DNA of 64,000 nucleotides, taken from positions 1 through 64,000 of the forward strand of contig NZ_BCWN01000013.1 in assembly GCF_001592225.1 (NCBI RefSeq), written 5' to 3'. Made by a program: the position numbers and the translations under genes. A model generated the notes under the pieces. The model did no database searches, had not been told where the DNA came from, and worked only from the letters and a program-made list of their open reading frames with translations. Positions 46,404 to 49,406 of this stretch are shown one piece after another (within the stretch, counting starts at the first letter, position 1; every line of letters begins with the position of its first letter). Origin of the DNA: Castellaniella caeni NBRC 101664 (lineage in GTDB: Bacteria > Pseudomonadota > Gammaproteobacteria > Burkholderiales > Burkholderiaceae_B).

Positions 46404-46542
46404 AGCCTGCCCGCAGCCGTCCCGGTCAGGCGGGCGGCTGCACGCACCACAGCACACTGCCTACACGCGGCAACCGCAACACCGCCGCCCCCAGGAAACG
46501 GCCGCGAGCGTAAGCACCGGCCCCAGCCAAGGAGCACATCAC

Positions 46543-47091
46543 ATGTCGATTCGCGTTTCCATCGTCGCCACCCGCACCGGGGACGACGGCACCACGGGCC
46601 TGGGCGACAAGACCCGGGTGCCCAAGGACGCCCCGCGCATCGCGGCCCTGGGCGACGTCGATGAGCTGAACAGCGCCATCGGCGTCTGGCGCACCCACAA
46701 CCTGCCCGAAGCCGTGGACGCTCTGCTCGCACGCATCCAGAACGAACTCTTCGATCTGGGCGGCGAACTGAGCATCCCCGGCTGGACGGCGCTGAAAGAC
46801 ACGCACGTGCAAGCCCTGGACGAGGCCCTGGCGCACTACAACCAGGCCCTGGGCCCGCTCAAGGAATTCATCCTGCCCGGCGGCTGCCCCGCCGCAGCCC
46901 AGGCCCACATGGCCCGCACCATCGCCCGCCGCGCCGAACGCGCGGTGGTCACCCTGGCACGCACGGAACCCGTCAACCCGCCCATCCTGCACTACCTGAA
47001 CCGCCTCTCCGACCTGTGCTTCGTCCTGGCCCGCCACCTGAACCAAGCCACCCACCACCCAGAAACATTATGGATGAGGCAGGACTATTGA
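46543..47091 (+). CDS. pduO: Cob(I)alamin adenosyltransferase, PduO type
   Basis: 182 residues. It transfers adenosine from ATP to cob(I)alamin to make adenosylcobalamin. The motif set TRTGDDGTTGLGDKTRVPKD, GDVDELNSAIGV, RRAERAVVTLAR and YLNRLSDLCFVLARHLN is diagnostic. AAGGAG lies eight bases before the ATG. No other B12 gene is nearby, so cobalamin is presumably imported or made elsewhere. Its most obvious client in this window is the class II ribonucleotide reductase. The stop codon lies inside a strong hairpin. Confidence 0.95.
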   Translation: MSIRVSIVATRTGDDGTTGLGDKTRVPKDAPRIAALGDVDELNSAIGVWRTHNLPEAVDALLARIQNELFDLGGELSIPGWTALKDTHVQALDEALAHYNQALGPLKEFILPGGCPAAAQAHMARTIARRAERAVVTLARTEPVNPPILHYLNRLSDLCFVLARHLNQATHHPETLWMRQDY

Positions 47092-47120
47092 CCGTCCCTG
47101 CGGACGGTCAATAGCCTGCC
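47078..47120. terminator. Strong hairpin spanning the pduO stop codon
   Basis: GGCAGG plus CTATTGACCGTCC pairs with GGACGGTCAATAG plus CCTGCC: 19 base pairs with a single bulged A and a CTGC loop. The TGA of pduO is within the 5' arm. It is likely a terminator or 3'-end stabiliser for pduO, and may also act for the convergent fic-like gene. Confidence 0.7.
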
Positions 47121-47145
47121 GAATCGGAGCGGCTTGCAAGCCGCG
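47120..47145 (+). repeat. Left copy of 26-bp imperfect repeat flanking the fic-like gene
   Basis: This 26-mer beginning CGAATCGGAGCGGCTTGC matches the sequence at 48824-48849 at 22 of 26 positions, in the same orientation. The pair brackets the fic-like gene. Confidence 0.6.
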
Positions 47146-47149
47146 ACGT

Positions 47150-47229
47150 GGAGAGATGCCCCGCCCCAAGACAAGCCCCGCCTGCCGATGGAGAGATATC
47201 CCGCCCCAAGACAAGCCCCGCCTGCCGAA
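47150..47229 (+). repeat. Two tandem 40-bp repeats downstream of the fic-like gene
   Basis: 47150-47189 and 47190-47229 are direct repeats differing at 3 of 40 positions; both contain GGAGAGAT and CGCCCCAAGACAAGCCCC. They end about 11 bp before the fic-like stop. Confidence 0.9.
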
Positions 47230-47240
47230 TCAATACACCA

Positions 47241-48653
47241 CTACTTTCTCTGCCGCCAAGCCAGATACTCGGCGCGCCGCAGCCGATACCGCGCCACGCT
47301 GCCTTCGTGCAGATGCCGCAAGGCCTCACCGAGCAGCCCGACGAAAATGGCACGATCAGCAGCATCGGCGTATCGAACAGCCAAGCTTTCAAGCAGTGGC
47401 GCAACGGGTTCTTGCACACCCCGGACAACGTCTTGCACAGCCCGGATAAGCGCCTCACGGTAGCGAATTTTGACGGGGTCTGGCGCCACCATTTCTTGCG
47501 TAACGGCCAGATACCGCTGGCAAGAACGCTCGTACGCCCAGACGAAGACATCGCGCAAGAGTGCTACCTGGTTGAGTTCGTACACCCCCAACGTGCCATC
47601 AATATAGGCACGATCAGGCACATCGATGAACGACAGCGGGCATAAATTGTGGCGAATCAAAGAAATATTGGCCCCCAGCCGCGACACCCGTTTATTGACG
47701 TCATCAAATGGCTGCAAATACGGCAATTGCACCATCAGAAAAAACGCCTGTTCGAATGGGTCGGGTATCGCCGCTGCCTTGGCCAACAGCACATGGAAGC
47801 AATCGGCCAGCACTTGAGGAAACGTCAAAGGGTGAAACACCGTGCCTGAGATTTCGACAGGCCTGTTGCGCAAGCGCCCACAAGCATCTGGATCGGACAA
47901 TAAATCTTGCGAGAGCACGGCATGCAAATTTTGAAAGGTAAACGCATCGAAACCAATGTCATCGGCCGACTCAACCAGCATCTCGATGGCTGCCTTGTGG
48001 TTAAGGATCATCTGGGTTTCAAAAGCGTCTTTGCCCTGCGCCACTTGACCAAACTCGATGAGGTTTTGGGTATCGAGGCGGCTATACGTATTGCCCTCGA
48101 GTTGTGACGAAGCCCAGGACAAATCAACCAGGAGGCGCCCGAGGATGTCCCGGGCATAAGTGCCTGCGGGCCGTTGATCGGCTGGGGTACGGCCAATGGC
48201 ATGCAGCTGCTGCCGCAAAGGCTCTGGCAGGTAGAAAGTGACGCCAGGCTGGTACTGGTCAAGAAATTGCCGTTGATAGCCCACCGGGCGACGCCGCATC
48301 AGTGGCAGGTTGACATGGTCGCGTATCGTTTGCCCGTCTGGGGAAACCGTAATGTAAGGTGCCTCGGTGGTTTCTTTGAGCACGAGCGGTGTACTGGCCC
48401 CCAGAGCGGCGTGCCAAGCGCTGATGCTGGGCACGGCCCCTTGCCCGACGGGGCAATAGACCAGCGCGACGCTGTCGCCCTGGGTGCTGAGTCGTTGTTC
48501 TCGCACAAGCCGATGCAGACGACGCTGAAGGGTGCGCCGGTGAAGAGAGACGCCAAACCGCTGCGTCAGTGCCACTTGGATGTCAGTGACGCCGACACCC
48601 TGCGGATGACTTGCAACGATCGACAAGATGGCCTGAATTTCTGCGGCTGACAT
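47241..48653 (-). CDS. Fic-domain protein with degenerate catalytic motif
   Basis: 470 residues. An N-terminal winged helix (about 1-60), then a Fic fold. The inhibitory-helix motif is intact in SSQLEGNTYS. The catalytic loop, normally HPFxxGNGRxxR, reads QPFDDVNKRVSR: the catalytic histidine is glutamine and both glycines of the anion-hole stretch are Val and Lys. Classical AMP transfer therefore looks unlikely; it may be inactive, act as a regulator, or use another chemistry. The rest is intact, without frameshift. A large inverted repeat lies just upstream. Imperfect direct repeats and tandem 40-mers bound the gene, suggesting insertion between pduO and the CMD gene. Confidence 0.85.
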   Translation of the reverse strand: MSAAEIQAILSIVASHPQGVGVTDIQVALTQRFGVSLHRRTLQRRLHRLVREQRLSTQGDSVALVYCPVGQGAVPSISAWHAALGASTPLVLKETTEAPYITVSPDGQTIRDHVNLPLMRRRPVGYQRQFLDQYQPGVTFYLPEPLRQQLHAIGRTPADQRPAGTYARDILGRLLVDLSWASSQLEGNTYSRLDTQNLIEFGQVAQGKDAFETQMILNHKAAIEMLVESADDIGFDAFTFQNLHAVLSQDLLSDPDACGRLRNRPVEISGTVFHPLTFPQVLADCFHVLLAKAAAIPDPFEQAFFLMVQLPYLQPFDDVNKRVSRLGANISLIRHNLCPLSFIDVPDRAYIDGTLGVYELNQVALLRDVFVWAYERSCQRYLAVTQEMVAPDPVKIRYREALIRAVQDVVRGVQEPVAPLLESLAVRYADAADRAIFVGLLGEALRHLHEGSVARYRLRRAEYLAWRQRK

Positions 48654-48722
48654 GACAGTGCTCTATAAAAAATGGCGATGGAGCCATTACTGTCGCACAT
48701 ATCGCTGAAGAGCGTCAATAGC

Positions 48723-48758
48723 GCGACAAAGCACGACATGAATGTCGCGCTTTGTCGC
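48723..48758. promoter_or_regulatory. Large inverted repeat upstream of the fic-like gene
   Basis: Arms GCGACAAAGC-A-CGACAT and ATGTCG-C-GCTTTGTCGC form 16 of 17 pairs around a 2-nt centre, about 70 bp before the ATG. TGTCGCAC recurs near 48691 and 48754. The N-terminal winged helix of the Fic protein is a candidate binder. Confidence 0.6.
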
Positions 48759-48823
48759 ACAGCAACTGCCCGCCACAAGCAAACCGACCCGGCACCTGAA
48801 ACAGGGATGCCCTGTCAGCCCGT

Positions 48824-48849
48824 CGAATCGCAGCGGCTTGCCTACCGCG
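48824..48849 (+). repeat. Right copy of 26-bp imperfect repeat flanking the fic-like gene
   Basis: Matches 47120-47145 at 22 of 26 positions and overlaps the last codons of the following CMD-family gene (stop at 48842-48844). Confidence 0.6.
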
Positions 48850-49369
48850 CATCCTCCGAATGCACCTGCAGCGCCTCGAGAAAGCGCGACACCATGTTGT
48901 AGGCCGCGATCGTGGCAGTCAGCTCGACCAACCGGGCCTCGGTGAAATGCGCGCGCACCGCCGCGAACACGGCATCGGGCACCTGCACCGAGCGCGTCAT
49001 GGCGTCGGTATAGTCCAGCACCGCCCGCTCGCGGGCGTCGAACAGCGCAACAGGCAGCTCGGGCAGCGCCAGGGCATCCAGCTGAGAAGGCCGCAGGCCC
49101 TCGGCCAGCGCGATGGGCGCGTGCTGGTCGGCCTCGTAGGGCGCCCGGTTCAGGTGCGCGATGCGCATGATGACCAGCTCGCGGATCGCCCCGTCCAGGC
49201 GCGACTTCTGCCGAATGGCCGTGAGGTACGTCAGCCAGCCCTCGGCCACGGCGGGGCTGTGCAGCAACATCTGATACAGATGCAGCACGCTGCCGCGCGC
49301 GGCGCTGATGCGCTGCGCCAAAACAGCGGCCTCCCCCGTGTCCAGATCGGCATAGTCCAGTCGAGCCAT
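48842..49369 (-). CDS. CMD/AhpD-fold family protein without redox cysteines
   Basis: 175 residues. The fold is recognised from IRELVIMRIAHLNRAPYEADQHAPIALAEGL, where the usual ExxxCxxC...H reads YEADQHAPIA without cysteines. It therefore resembles the carboxymuconolactone decarboxylase side of the superfamily rather than thiol peroxidases. AGGA lies before the ATG at 49369. It follows the class III aminotransferase gene on the same strand after 90 bp, and both probably belong to the same catabolic unit. Substrate unknown. Confidence 0.82.
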   Translation of the reverse strand: MARLDYADLDTGEAAVLAQRISAARGSVLHLYQMLLHSPAVAEGWLTYLTAIRQKSRLDGAIRELVIMRIAHLNRAPYEADQHAPIALAEGLRPSQLDALALPELPVALFDARERAVLDYTDAMTRSVQVPDAVFAAVRAHFTEARLVELTATIAAYNMVSRFLEALQVHSEDAR

Positions 49370-49382
49370 CCTGTTTTCCTCA

Positions 49383-49406
49383 GTCAATCAATCAGTCAAT
49401 CAATCA
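49383..49406 (+). repeat. Tandem 12-mer of TCAA-type tetranucleotides
   Basis: GTCAATCAATCA occurs twice in tandem just upstream of the CMD-family start. On the coding strand it reads as TGAT/TGAC units ending at the ribosome site. Length change here could alter spacing of expression signals. Confidence 0.8.

What the first reader, a model, noticed from the sequence alone, without database searches (positions are those of the whole stretch)
47120..48849. Fic-like gene with a noncanonical catalytic loop bracketed by direct repeats
QPFDDVNKRVSR replaces HPFxxGNGRxxR, yet the frame is intact and the inhibitory SSQLEGN motif is kept. The gene is fused to a winged helix, has a 36-bp inverted repeat upstream with TGTCGCAC motifs, and is flanked by 26-bp imperfect direct repeats (22/26) plus tandem 40-mers. 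This looks like an acquired, maintained pseudo-Fic regulator or a Fic with different chemistry.
Basis: partly seen in the sequence, partly recalled or inferred. Interest (0 to 1): 0.62.

Follow-up and report, generated by a model that had tools for sequence, protein, structure and literature searches.

The report
Fic protein with self-binding operator array
This gene belongs to a widespread, well-preserved family of Fic proteins that lack the usual catalytic histidine and carry a DNA-binding domain whose likely target sites are stacked in front of the gene itself, so it is most likely a self-controlling regulator rather than a dead or ordinary toxin gene.

Summary
The Fic ORF (47241-48653, minus strand, 470 aa) is real and its variant loop is a family trait: Gln replaces the catalytic His in 115 of 131 homologous ORFs and in 80 of 80 of a second collection. 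Selection is purifying.

The N-terminus is predicted to be a winged helix. Many members carry clustered short half-sites before the start codon, and the half-site word follows the recognition helix. The window has five in 68 bp; nowhere else in its 64 kb are there more than two so close. Best explanation: a one-component autorepressor whose histidine-less Fic domain senses a nucleotide or a modified partner. Binding, repression and ligand are untested.

The 'direct repeats' are not insertion scars but pieces of a dispersed, structured ~110-nt repeat. Five congeners have an empty or nearly empty site without the gene or either copy.

In print already: the Gln motif (Khater & Mohanty 2015, clade D2), Fic-HTH fusions (Kinch 2009) and an autorepressing Fic-HTH with His (CccR, 2022). 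Eight library searches showed no report of these arrays or the helix/operator match. New variant of a known kind.

The parts
47241..48653 (-). Gln-type Fic protein, 470 aa: winged helix, linker, class II Fic domain, C-terminal helical part
48444..48653 (-). N-terminal winged helix (residues 1-70)
   Evidence: AlphaFold2 alone and in the full model; RosR, Nur, MecI and BlaI among neighbours at VIA Z 10.3-11.1
48501..48539 (-). recognition helix, residues 39-51, LQRR group (assignment as recognition helix is inference from the fold)
   Evidence: helix 39-51 in both models; follows operator word
47487..48341 (-). Fic domain, residues 105-389
   Evidence: FICD Z 25.2, 236 residues, rmsd 2.7
48090..48110 (-). 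inhibitory-helix motif SSQLEGN (residues 182-188)
   Evidence: S182, S183, E186, G187 invariant; SSxLEGN in 80 of 80
47679..47714 (-). variant catalytic loop QPFDDVNKRVSR (residues 314-325)
   Evidence: Q aligns with the His of C. elegans FIC-1's HPF motif; Q in 80 of 80
48691..48696 (+). operator half-site TGTCGC
48723..48758 (.). 36-bp palindrome = four operator half-sites (48723, 48733, 48743, 48753) at 10-bp steps, two in each orientation
47066..47190 (+). complete copy of the dispersed structured repeat at the 3' end of the Fic gene (one of the model's seven training copies)
47149..47228 (+). tandem 40-mers; overlap the 3' part of the structured repeat
48824..48849 (+). fragment of the same repeat (second-hairpin region, palindrome spoiled)
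46516..47091 (+). left neighbour, cobalamin adenosyltransferase
   Evidence: Pfam Cob_adeno_trans 1e-57; lies 2 nt from the right neighbour in three empty-site congeners
48842..49387 (-). right neighbour, carboxymuconolactone decarboxylase family
   Evidence: Pfam CMD 1.5e-12

Best explanation
The gene encodes a one-component autoregulator. The N-terminal winged helix binds a cluster of half-sites (TGTCGC in this species) before its own start codon and represses transcription. The class II Fic domain keeps the nucleotide pocket, metal ligand and autoinhibitory glutamate, but not the histidine that acts as general base. It therefore most likely binds a ligand (a nucleotide or a modified protein) instead of efficiently transferring AMP or phosphate, and that binding changes the DNA-binding state. 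Supported here by comparison: clustered sites in much of the family, match of helix type and operator word, conserved pocket, purifying selection. Inferred: binding itself, repression rather than activation, the ligand, and the coupling. In a few lineages the same unit sits in a type I restriction operon and could control it.
For: Repeated words upstream: a 6-mer five or more times in 36 of 88 upstream windows against 5 of 528 control windows; 16 of 68 against 17 of 644 in a second set. LQRR-helix proteins: 59 of 76 loci have three or more TGKCGC sites in the 260 bp before the start, against 18 of 663 control windows; spacings cluster at 12-13, 18-22, 31-33 and 40-42 bp. Sites per locus: LQY with TTGCGC 4.0 (8 loci), AQR with TGGCGC 5.14 (14), TVKRQ with TGAGCT 4.17 (6), TVRR with TGAGCA 3.5 (4), T[VI]NR with TTATCA 3.43 (7). 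Among loci under 60% protein identity, 22 of 42 fell in these helix groups with enough flank: matched sites 82, permuted mean 40.0, reached in 0 of 20000. Out of sample: three viral-contig members at 28-29% identity with a TVKRIL helix carry AGCTCA 6-7 times. In the window the five-site cluster is the densest and the array pattern is unique in the genome. Pocket: F316, D318, N320, K321, R322, R325 and E186 invariant in 37 diverse members. Losing the Fic His abolishes AMPylation and deAMPylation in FICD and Fic-1 (passages). A Gln-type Fic was not toxic in E. coli (passages).
Against: No binding, repression or ligand experiment exists. Arrays are not universal: 17 of 76 LQRR loci have fewer than three sites, 32 of 68 loci in the second set had at most three copies of any 6-mer, like most controls, and viral L225 has none. 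The match of helix and word is not perfectly diagonal: TTGCGC also averages 0.78, 1.21 and 1.17 in the LQRR, AQR and TVKRQ groups, and GAGCAG in the joint TVKR/TVRR set reached three sites in only 2 of 12. Under 60% identity, five of the six helix groups rest on two loci each. The window copy alone failed the exact 7-mer test (p 0.985), and its four GCGACA copies are a count that 64 of 528 controls reach; it stands out by density. Its 10-bp steps are uncommon in the family. No residue cleanly separates TGTCGC from TGGCGC users. P275 invariant and P279 nearly so, which I take for the flap, would also suit a working transferase. Common descent of upstream DNA is reduced, not removed, by identity cut-offs.
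Confidence: 0.6

Rival explanations
1. A working Fic enzyme (AMP, other nucleotide or phosphate transfer) that uses Gln, the substrate or another residue in place of His, with the winged helix serving only to keep a toxic enzyme at low level, as in CccR.
For: The other motif residues and the inhibitory Glu are invariant in 37 diverse members; omega 0.05-0.21 in six pairs; NKR with Lys resembles Doc, reported as a kinase (passage). Khater & Mohanty argue the clade may not be dead (section 6 read). CccR is an active Fic with autorepression (passages).
Against: His mutants of FICD and Fic-1 lose both activities (passages); a Gln-type Fic expressed in E. coli was not toxic (passages), though it was not compared with this one by sequence.
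Confidence: 0.27
2. A controller of neighbouring defence genes (mainly type I restriction-modification) rather than mainly of itself.
For: Matches to HsdR, HsdM or HsdS start within 50 bp downstream at six loci (L193, L201, L177, L182, L051, L050) of 154 searched with nine reference proteins; 63 of the 154 hold 3 kb or more downstream. Pfam confirms HsdR in L193 and L201 and HsdM in L182; SIR2_2 (L039), DUF1016 (L210) and DUF6088 (L132) genes follow others (ten proteins scanned).
Against: No recurrent neighbour: the commonest cluster is in 5 of 71 loci; 20 of 67 have a codirectional next ORF within 100 bp (mechanical ORFs). In the window the neighbours are a cobalamin adenosyltransferase, convergent, and a carboxymuconolactone decarboxylase family gene upstream.
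Confidence: 0.08
3. A decaying pseudogene of a canonical Fic.
For: Loss of the catalytic His; some paralogues are broken or truncated (L124, L093, L075).
Against: Gln in 80 of 80 genome loci; seven canonical His rows and 46 Gln rows fall on two sides of one branch, 100/100 (53 selected rows, His rows L081 and L124 left out); omega 0.05-0.21.
Confidence: 0.02

Closest known systems
Gln-type Doc/Fic clade D2 of Khater & Mohanty 2015 (PMC4454073)
   Same: Motif Qx[F|Y]x[D|E][G|V]NKR with Gln for the catalytic His (section 6 read); the window's QPFDDVNKR fits.
   Different: They report 45 sequences, usually single-domain, placed in the Doc clade; regulatory DNA is not mentioned in that section. 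The present subfamily has a predicted winged helix and clustered upstream sites, and its closest fold is FICD, class II.
CccR of Yersinia pseudotuberculosis (PMC9755527)
   Same: Class II Fic with a DNA-binding domain that represses its own promoter through a palindrome (passages).
   Different: CccR keeps catalytic His192, AMPylates FtsZ, has a C-terminal HTH and one pair of 10-bp boxes 26 bp apart. Here the HTH is N-terminal, His is Gln, and 59 of 76 LQRR loci have three or more half-sites.
FICD/HYPE and BT_2513 (Fic with inhibitory helix)
   Same: Fold: FICD Z 25.2 over 236 residues, BT_2513 Z 22.5 over 237.
   Different: FIC-1 of that group has HPFTDGNGR; here Q and NKR.
Metagenomic ORF25, QFFFDGNKRTAR (PMC3948609)
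   Same: Gln-type motif; tested in E. coli and not toxic (passages).
   Different: Flanked there by two small ORFs; not compared with the window protein by sequence here.
PADLOC PDC-S04 and SoFic
   Same: Similarity E 2.1e-10 and 6.4e-08.
   Different: The matched stretches, 165-351 and 179-338, lie in the Fic part; I ran no search for a defence assay of this family.

Membership tests
Fic/DOC family (Pfam PF02661) | profile match above the curated cut-off | tested here: met
   30.3 bits, cut-off 24
Canonical Fic AMP-transferase | HPFx[D/E]GNGRxxR with catalytic His | tested here: not met
   QPFDDVNKRVSR; Gln in 80 of 80 relatives
Class II Fic (N-terminal inhibitory helix) | (S/T)xxxE(G/N) helix N-terminal to the Fic core (definition recalled) | tested here: met
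   SSQLEGN 182-188 aligned with the FIC-1 motif; FICD-like fold Z 25.2
Doc kinase toxin (Phd/Doc) | His-containing NKR motif plus a Phd antitoxin gene (definition partly recalled) | tested here: not met
   NKR present but His is Gln; no recurrent partner gene in 71 loci
Clade D2 Gln-type Fic/Doc (Khater & Mohanty) | Qx[F|Y]x[D|E][G|V]NKR | tested here: met
   QPFDDVNKR; their tree was not rebuilt
Fic-HTH autorepressor (CccR-like) | binds its own promoter | not testable with these tools
   indirect only: clustered sites and match of helix and operator word
Winged-helix DNA-binding domain | H-H-H-wing fold | tested here: met
   model of residues 1-71, pLDDT 81, Z 10-11 to several winged-helix repressors; weaker: Foldseek best E 4.8e-3, none under 1e-3; Pfam HTH hits below cut-off
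Transposon or cassette with target-site duplication | direct repeats made at the ends, one copy left in the empty site | tested here: not met
   repeat core at nine places in the genome; empty sites show neither copy; G116 and G117 hold one copy

The most novel reading that the evidence does not exclude
The histidine-less Fic domain is a reader: like FICD H363A, which forms a long-lived trapped complex with AMPylated BiP (passage), it would hold an AMPylated or otherwise nucleotidylated protein without releasing it and pass the signal to its winged helix, so that the gene, and in some lineages an attached defence operon, switches on when cellular proteins become nucleotidylated. It would be a transcriptional sensor of protein AMPylation.
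Probability: 0.15. Interest if true: 0.85.

Novelty: new variant of a known kind. Interest (0 to 1): 0.52.

Why it matters
A clade that I found in print only as an odd motif gets a testable job: the family seems to carry its own DNA-binding code, with matched operator words in several lineages, so the regulatory half can be tested at the bench with one gel shift. Knowing that half makes the open question sharp: what does a Fic pocket do that has kept everything except its catalytic base? If it senses ligands or modified proteins, Fic domains would join the receptor domains of one-component regulators.

Tried and rejected
Rejected: pseudogene. Rejected: segment bracketed by insertion-made repeats. 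Rejected: toxin-antitoxin operon with a fixed partner gene (commonest neighbour cluster in 5 of 71 loci). Thought unlikely: dedicated deAMPylase, because the His is needed for deAMPylation in FICD and Fic-1 (passages).

Led nowhere: exact 7-mer test on the window copy alone (p 0.985); promoter and terminator consensus scan (one promoter-like hit against 0.7 expected, two terminator-like against 2.5); specificity residue between TGTCGC and TGGCGC; DNA-level match in plasmids (none); Rfam on six repeat loci (three matches, all far under gathering score, best E 0.051).

Caveats on counts; the 115 'Q' rows include truncated or degenerate copies (such as L018, L075, L091, L098, L099, L120); of the 16 others, eight are distant canonical His proteins, one is the decayed paralogue L124, four have no residue there, and L100 (Leu), L093 (Arg) and a second L097 frame (Ser) are degenerate or misaligned; 88 ORFs kept at E under 1e-40 after dropping seven named fragments, one with short flank and 13 redundant rows; some control windows with four or more copies are tandem repeats; 68 of 80 loci used for upstream counts (short flank or redundant rows dropped). 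One search kept 154 of 168 at under 90% identity; 53 rows chosen by hand. One genome contigs pattern contained the Gln loop, so that scan favours Gln; the whole-genome searches do not choose on the loop, but overlap and include the window's own genome. ORFs and starts in scripts were set mechanically.

Literature: eight library searches listed no paper that I recognised as describing operator arrays for Gln-type Fics; most subscription papers are not held, and the listed papers were not all opened.

Full report
Observation. The window carries an intact 470-aa ORF at 47241-48653 on the minus strand. The loop QPFDDVNKRVSR lies at residues 314-325 and SSQLEGN at 182-188. Pfam finds a Fic domain (7.5e-07); the best solved structures by sequence are the C. 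elegans FICD homologue and FICD. In that alignment Q314 stands at the His of HPF and E186 at the Glu of the EGNT motif. The inverted repeat, direct repeats and tandem 40-mers are all present.

Family. Translated searches of whole genomes at E 1e-10 found relatives in 49 of 268 genomes of the family, 38 of 399 drawn from the order and 22 of 398 drawn from the phylum; the sets overlap, include the window's genome and include weak hits. In 131 ORFs from 130 loci, the first loop residue was Q in 115, H in 9, absent in 4, and L, R and S once each. Eight of the nine H rows are distant HPFxDGNGR proteins (E 8e-14 to 1.4e-11); the ninth, L124, is an ORF within a paralogue that has four stops. Some Q rows are truncated or otherwise degenerate. 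A separate collection gave Q in 80 of 80 and SSxLEGN in 80 of 80, though one scan pattern there included the Gln. In a tree of 53 hand-picked rows, seven His rows and 46 Gln rows fall on two sides of one branch with support 100/100 (several long branches were flagged, and His rows L081 and L124 were not included). Six pairs gave omega of 0.05 to 0.21 (YN00 failed for the window pair, whose dS of 2.9 is near saturation). The loop is a family trait under selection.

Structure. AlphaFold2 with 60 sequences: mean pLDDT 92, pTM 0.70, under 50 only at 71-96. Residues 105-388 match FICD at Z 25.2, rmsd 2.7 over 236 residues. Residues 1-71 alone give a winged helix (pLDDT 81) with neighbours such as RosR, Nur, MecI and BlaI at Z 10.3-11.1; Foldseek's best E was only 4.8e-3. 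Invariant residues in 37 diverse members include S182, S183, E186, G187, Q314, F316, D318, N320, K321, R322 and R325; in the 60-sequence alignment D318, K321 and R322 are nearly invariant rather than invariant.

Upstream arrays. Reading the upstream regions showed short words repeated several times up to the start codon (22 loci printed). With exact 7-mers, 38 of 88 upstream windows reached p 0.01 or less against shuffles, and four or more copies occurred in 40 of 88 against 29 of 1184 control windows. With 6-mers, five or more copies occurred in 36 of 88 against 5 of 528. In the second set it was 16 of 68 against 17 of 644; 32 of the 68 had three copies or fewer. The commonest top words there were again GCGACA and GCGCCA, ten loci each among the 36 with four or more copies.

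Helix and word. Sorting by recognition helix gives a word per helix type. Loci with three or more sites in the 260 bp before the start: LQRR with TGKCGC 59 of 76 (controls 18 of 663), LQY with TTGCGC 5 of 8 (0 of 71), AQR with TGGCGC 13 of 14 (1 of 118), TVKR with TGAGCT 6 of 8 (0 of 62), TV[NG]R with TTATCA 5 of 9 (0 of 65); against this, GAGCAG in the joint TVKR/TVRR set 2 of 12 (0 of 94). In the cross table each group's own word is the highest, but TTGCGC also averages 0.78 to 1.21 in three other groups. Spacings in the LQRR group cluster at 12-13, 18-22, 31-33 and 40-42 bp. Under 60% protein identity 42 loci remain, 22 of them in these helix groups with enough flank: matched count 82 against a permuted mean of 40.0, reached in 0 of 20000 permutations; LQRR has 12 loci and the other five groups two each. 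Three viral-contig members at 28-29% identity, not used to set the code, have helix TVKRIL and six or seven AGCTCA words; a fourth, L225, has no array. In one search, distant Gln-type Fics whose EGN lies at 61-134 of the open frame (154-200 in the members printed), and canonical HPF Fics, gave top counts of 2-4, except L092 with an A-rich word seven times; absence of a winged helix in these was not tested.

Window array. Half-sites TGTCGC/TGTCGT lie at 48691 (+), 48723 (-), 48733 (-), 48743 (+) and 48753 (+). Of 118 such sites in the window, no other place has more than two starting within 65 bp; random placement reached five in 5 of 2000 trials. The array pattern occurs nowhere else in the genome with up to 3 mismatches, so the likely target is the gene itself.

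Context. No neighbour recurs (commonest cluster in 5 of 71 loci); 20 of 67 have a codirectional next ORF within 100 bp. At six of 154 loci a type I restriction gene match starts within 50 bp downstream, and SIR2_2, DUF1016 and DUF6088 genes follow others. Plasmid copies sit near integrases, TniQ or HipA genes.

Site. In G116 and G117 the gene lies between the same two neighbours as in the window. In G112, G113 and G114 those neighbours are 2 nt apart by match ends, in G118 20 nt and in G119 67 nt. G118 has a homologue elsewhere. G115 and G120 lack the right neighbour at the threshold used and cannot be scored. The empty sites show no repeat copy; G116 and G117 hold the left copy only.

Repeats. 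The repeat core occurs at nine places in the genome with up to 2 mismatches and never in the reversed control. Seven copies align as a two-hairpin element with double changes at 15 of 31 predicted pairs. A covariance model finds 18 copies in this genome and up to 117 in congeners (at most 150 candidates scored per genome). The 40-mers overlap its 3' part.

How it works. Shown by comparison: clustered upstream sites tied to helix type, conserved pocket without His. Inferred: binding, repression, ligand. His is needed for both AMPylation and deAMPylation in FICD (passages) and in Fic-1 (passages), and a Gln-type Fic was not toxic in E. coli (passages); hence a sensing rather than transferring domain is favoured, at moderate confidence. 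The invariant pocket and Khater & Mohanty's argument (section 6 read) keep the enzyme rival alive.

Known. Gln motif: Khater & Mohanty 2015, PMC4454073 (passages, section 6). Fic-HTH fusions with suggested autorepression: Kinch 2009, PMC2686095 (passages). Autorepressing Fic-HTH with His: CccR, PMC9755527 (passages). The C. fetus paper PMC5651007 describes another degenerate motif, HPFREGNTRTIA in Fic2 (passages). I therefore call it a new variant of a known kind; the arrays and the helix/word match are the new part, as far as the eight library searches show.

Noticed in passing
window 47066-47190 and L245-L250, L252-L281: A dispersed ~110-nt structured repeat: GGATGAG, then a stem whose sequence differs between copies under a near-constant apex CC(CTGC)GG, then CGAATC and a second hairpin. 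At E 0.01, 18 copies in this genome and 117, 89, 66, 15, 12, 12, 8, 3 and 0 in nine congeners (at most 150 candidates scored per genome). In 36 distinct copies 96.7% of pair cells are standard and 23 of 31 pairs show double changes (shuffled mean 12.1; slid controls 5-12) (the alignment was fitted to the model). Rfam on six loci: nothing near a gathering score.
   Followed up: partly
L253-L255, L258-L260, L263, L265, L270, L271, L275, L277, L280, L281: The repeat's GGATGAG or its variant often holds a TGA that ends a long upstream frame: at 14 of the 22 pattern hits at the model-set position that frame is the longest (once tied) with 100 or more codons; 13 of 22 copies examined lie between convergent ORFs. 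Several are orthologous sites (e.g. L253, L254, L270 follow a 466-aa ORF), and frames are mechanical. Suggests insertion at gene ends or a terminator-like role.
   Followed up: partly
window 47040-47091: The cobalamin adenosyltransferase's last residues (after LW) are encoded by the repeat, unlike in the empty-site congeners, so the repeat seems to have replaced its C-terminus (read).
   Followed up: no
L193, L201, L177, L182, L051, L050: Gln-type winged-helix Fic genes placed directly before or among type I restriction genes.
   Followed up: partly
L124 (G072): Among the 131 ORFs, the only close relative with His at the catalytic position, LHPFQDVNKRVSR, lies in a paralogue with four stops.
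   Followed up: no
L036, L129, L130: On Undibacterium and Massilia plasmids an integrase gene follows the Fic gene within about 30-415 bp on the same strand.
   Followed up: no
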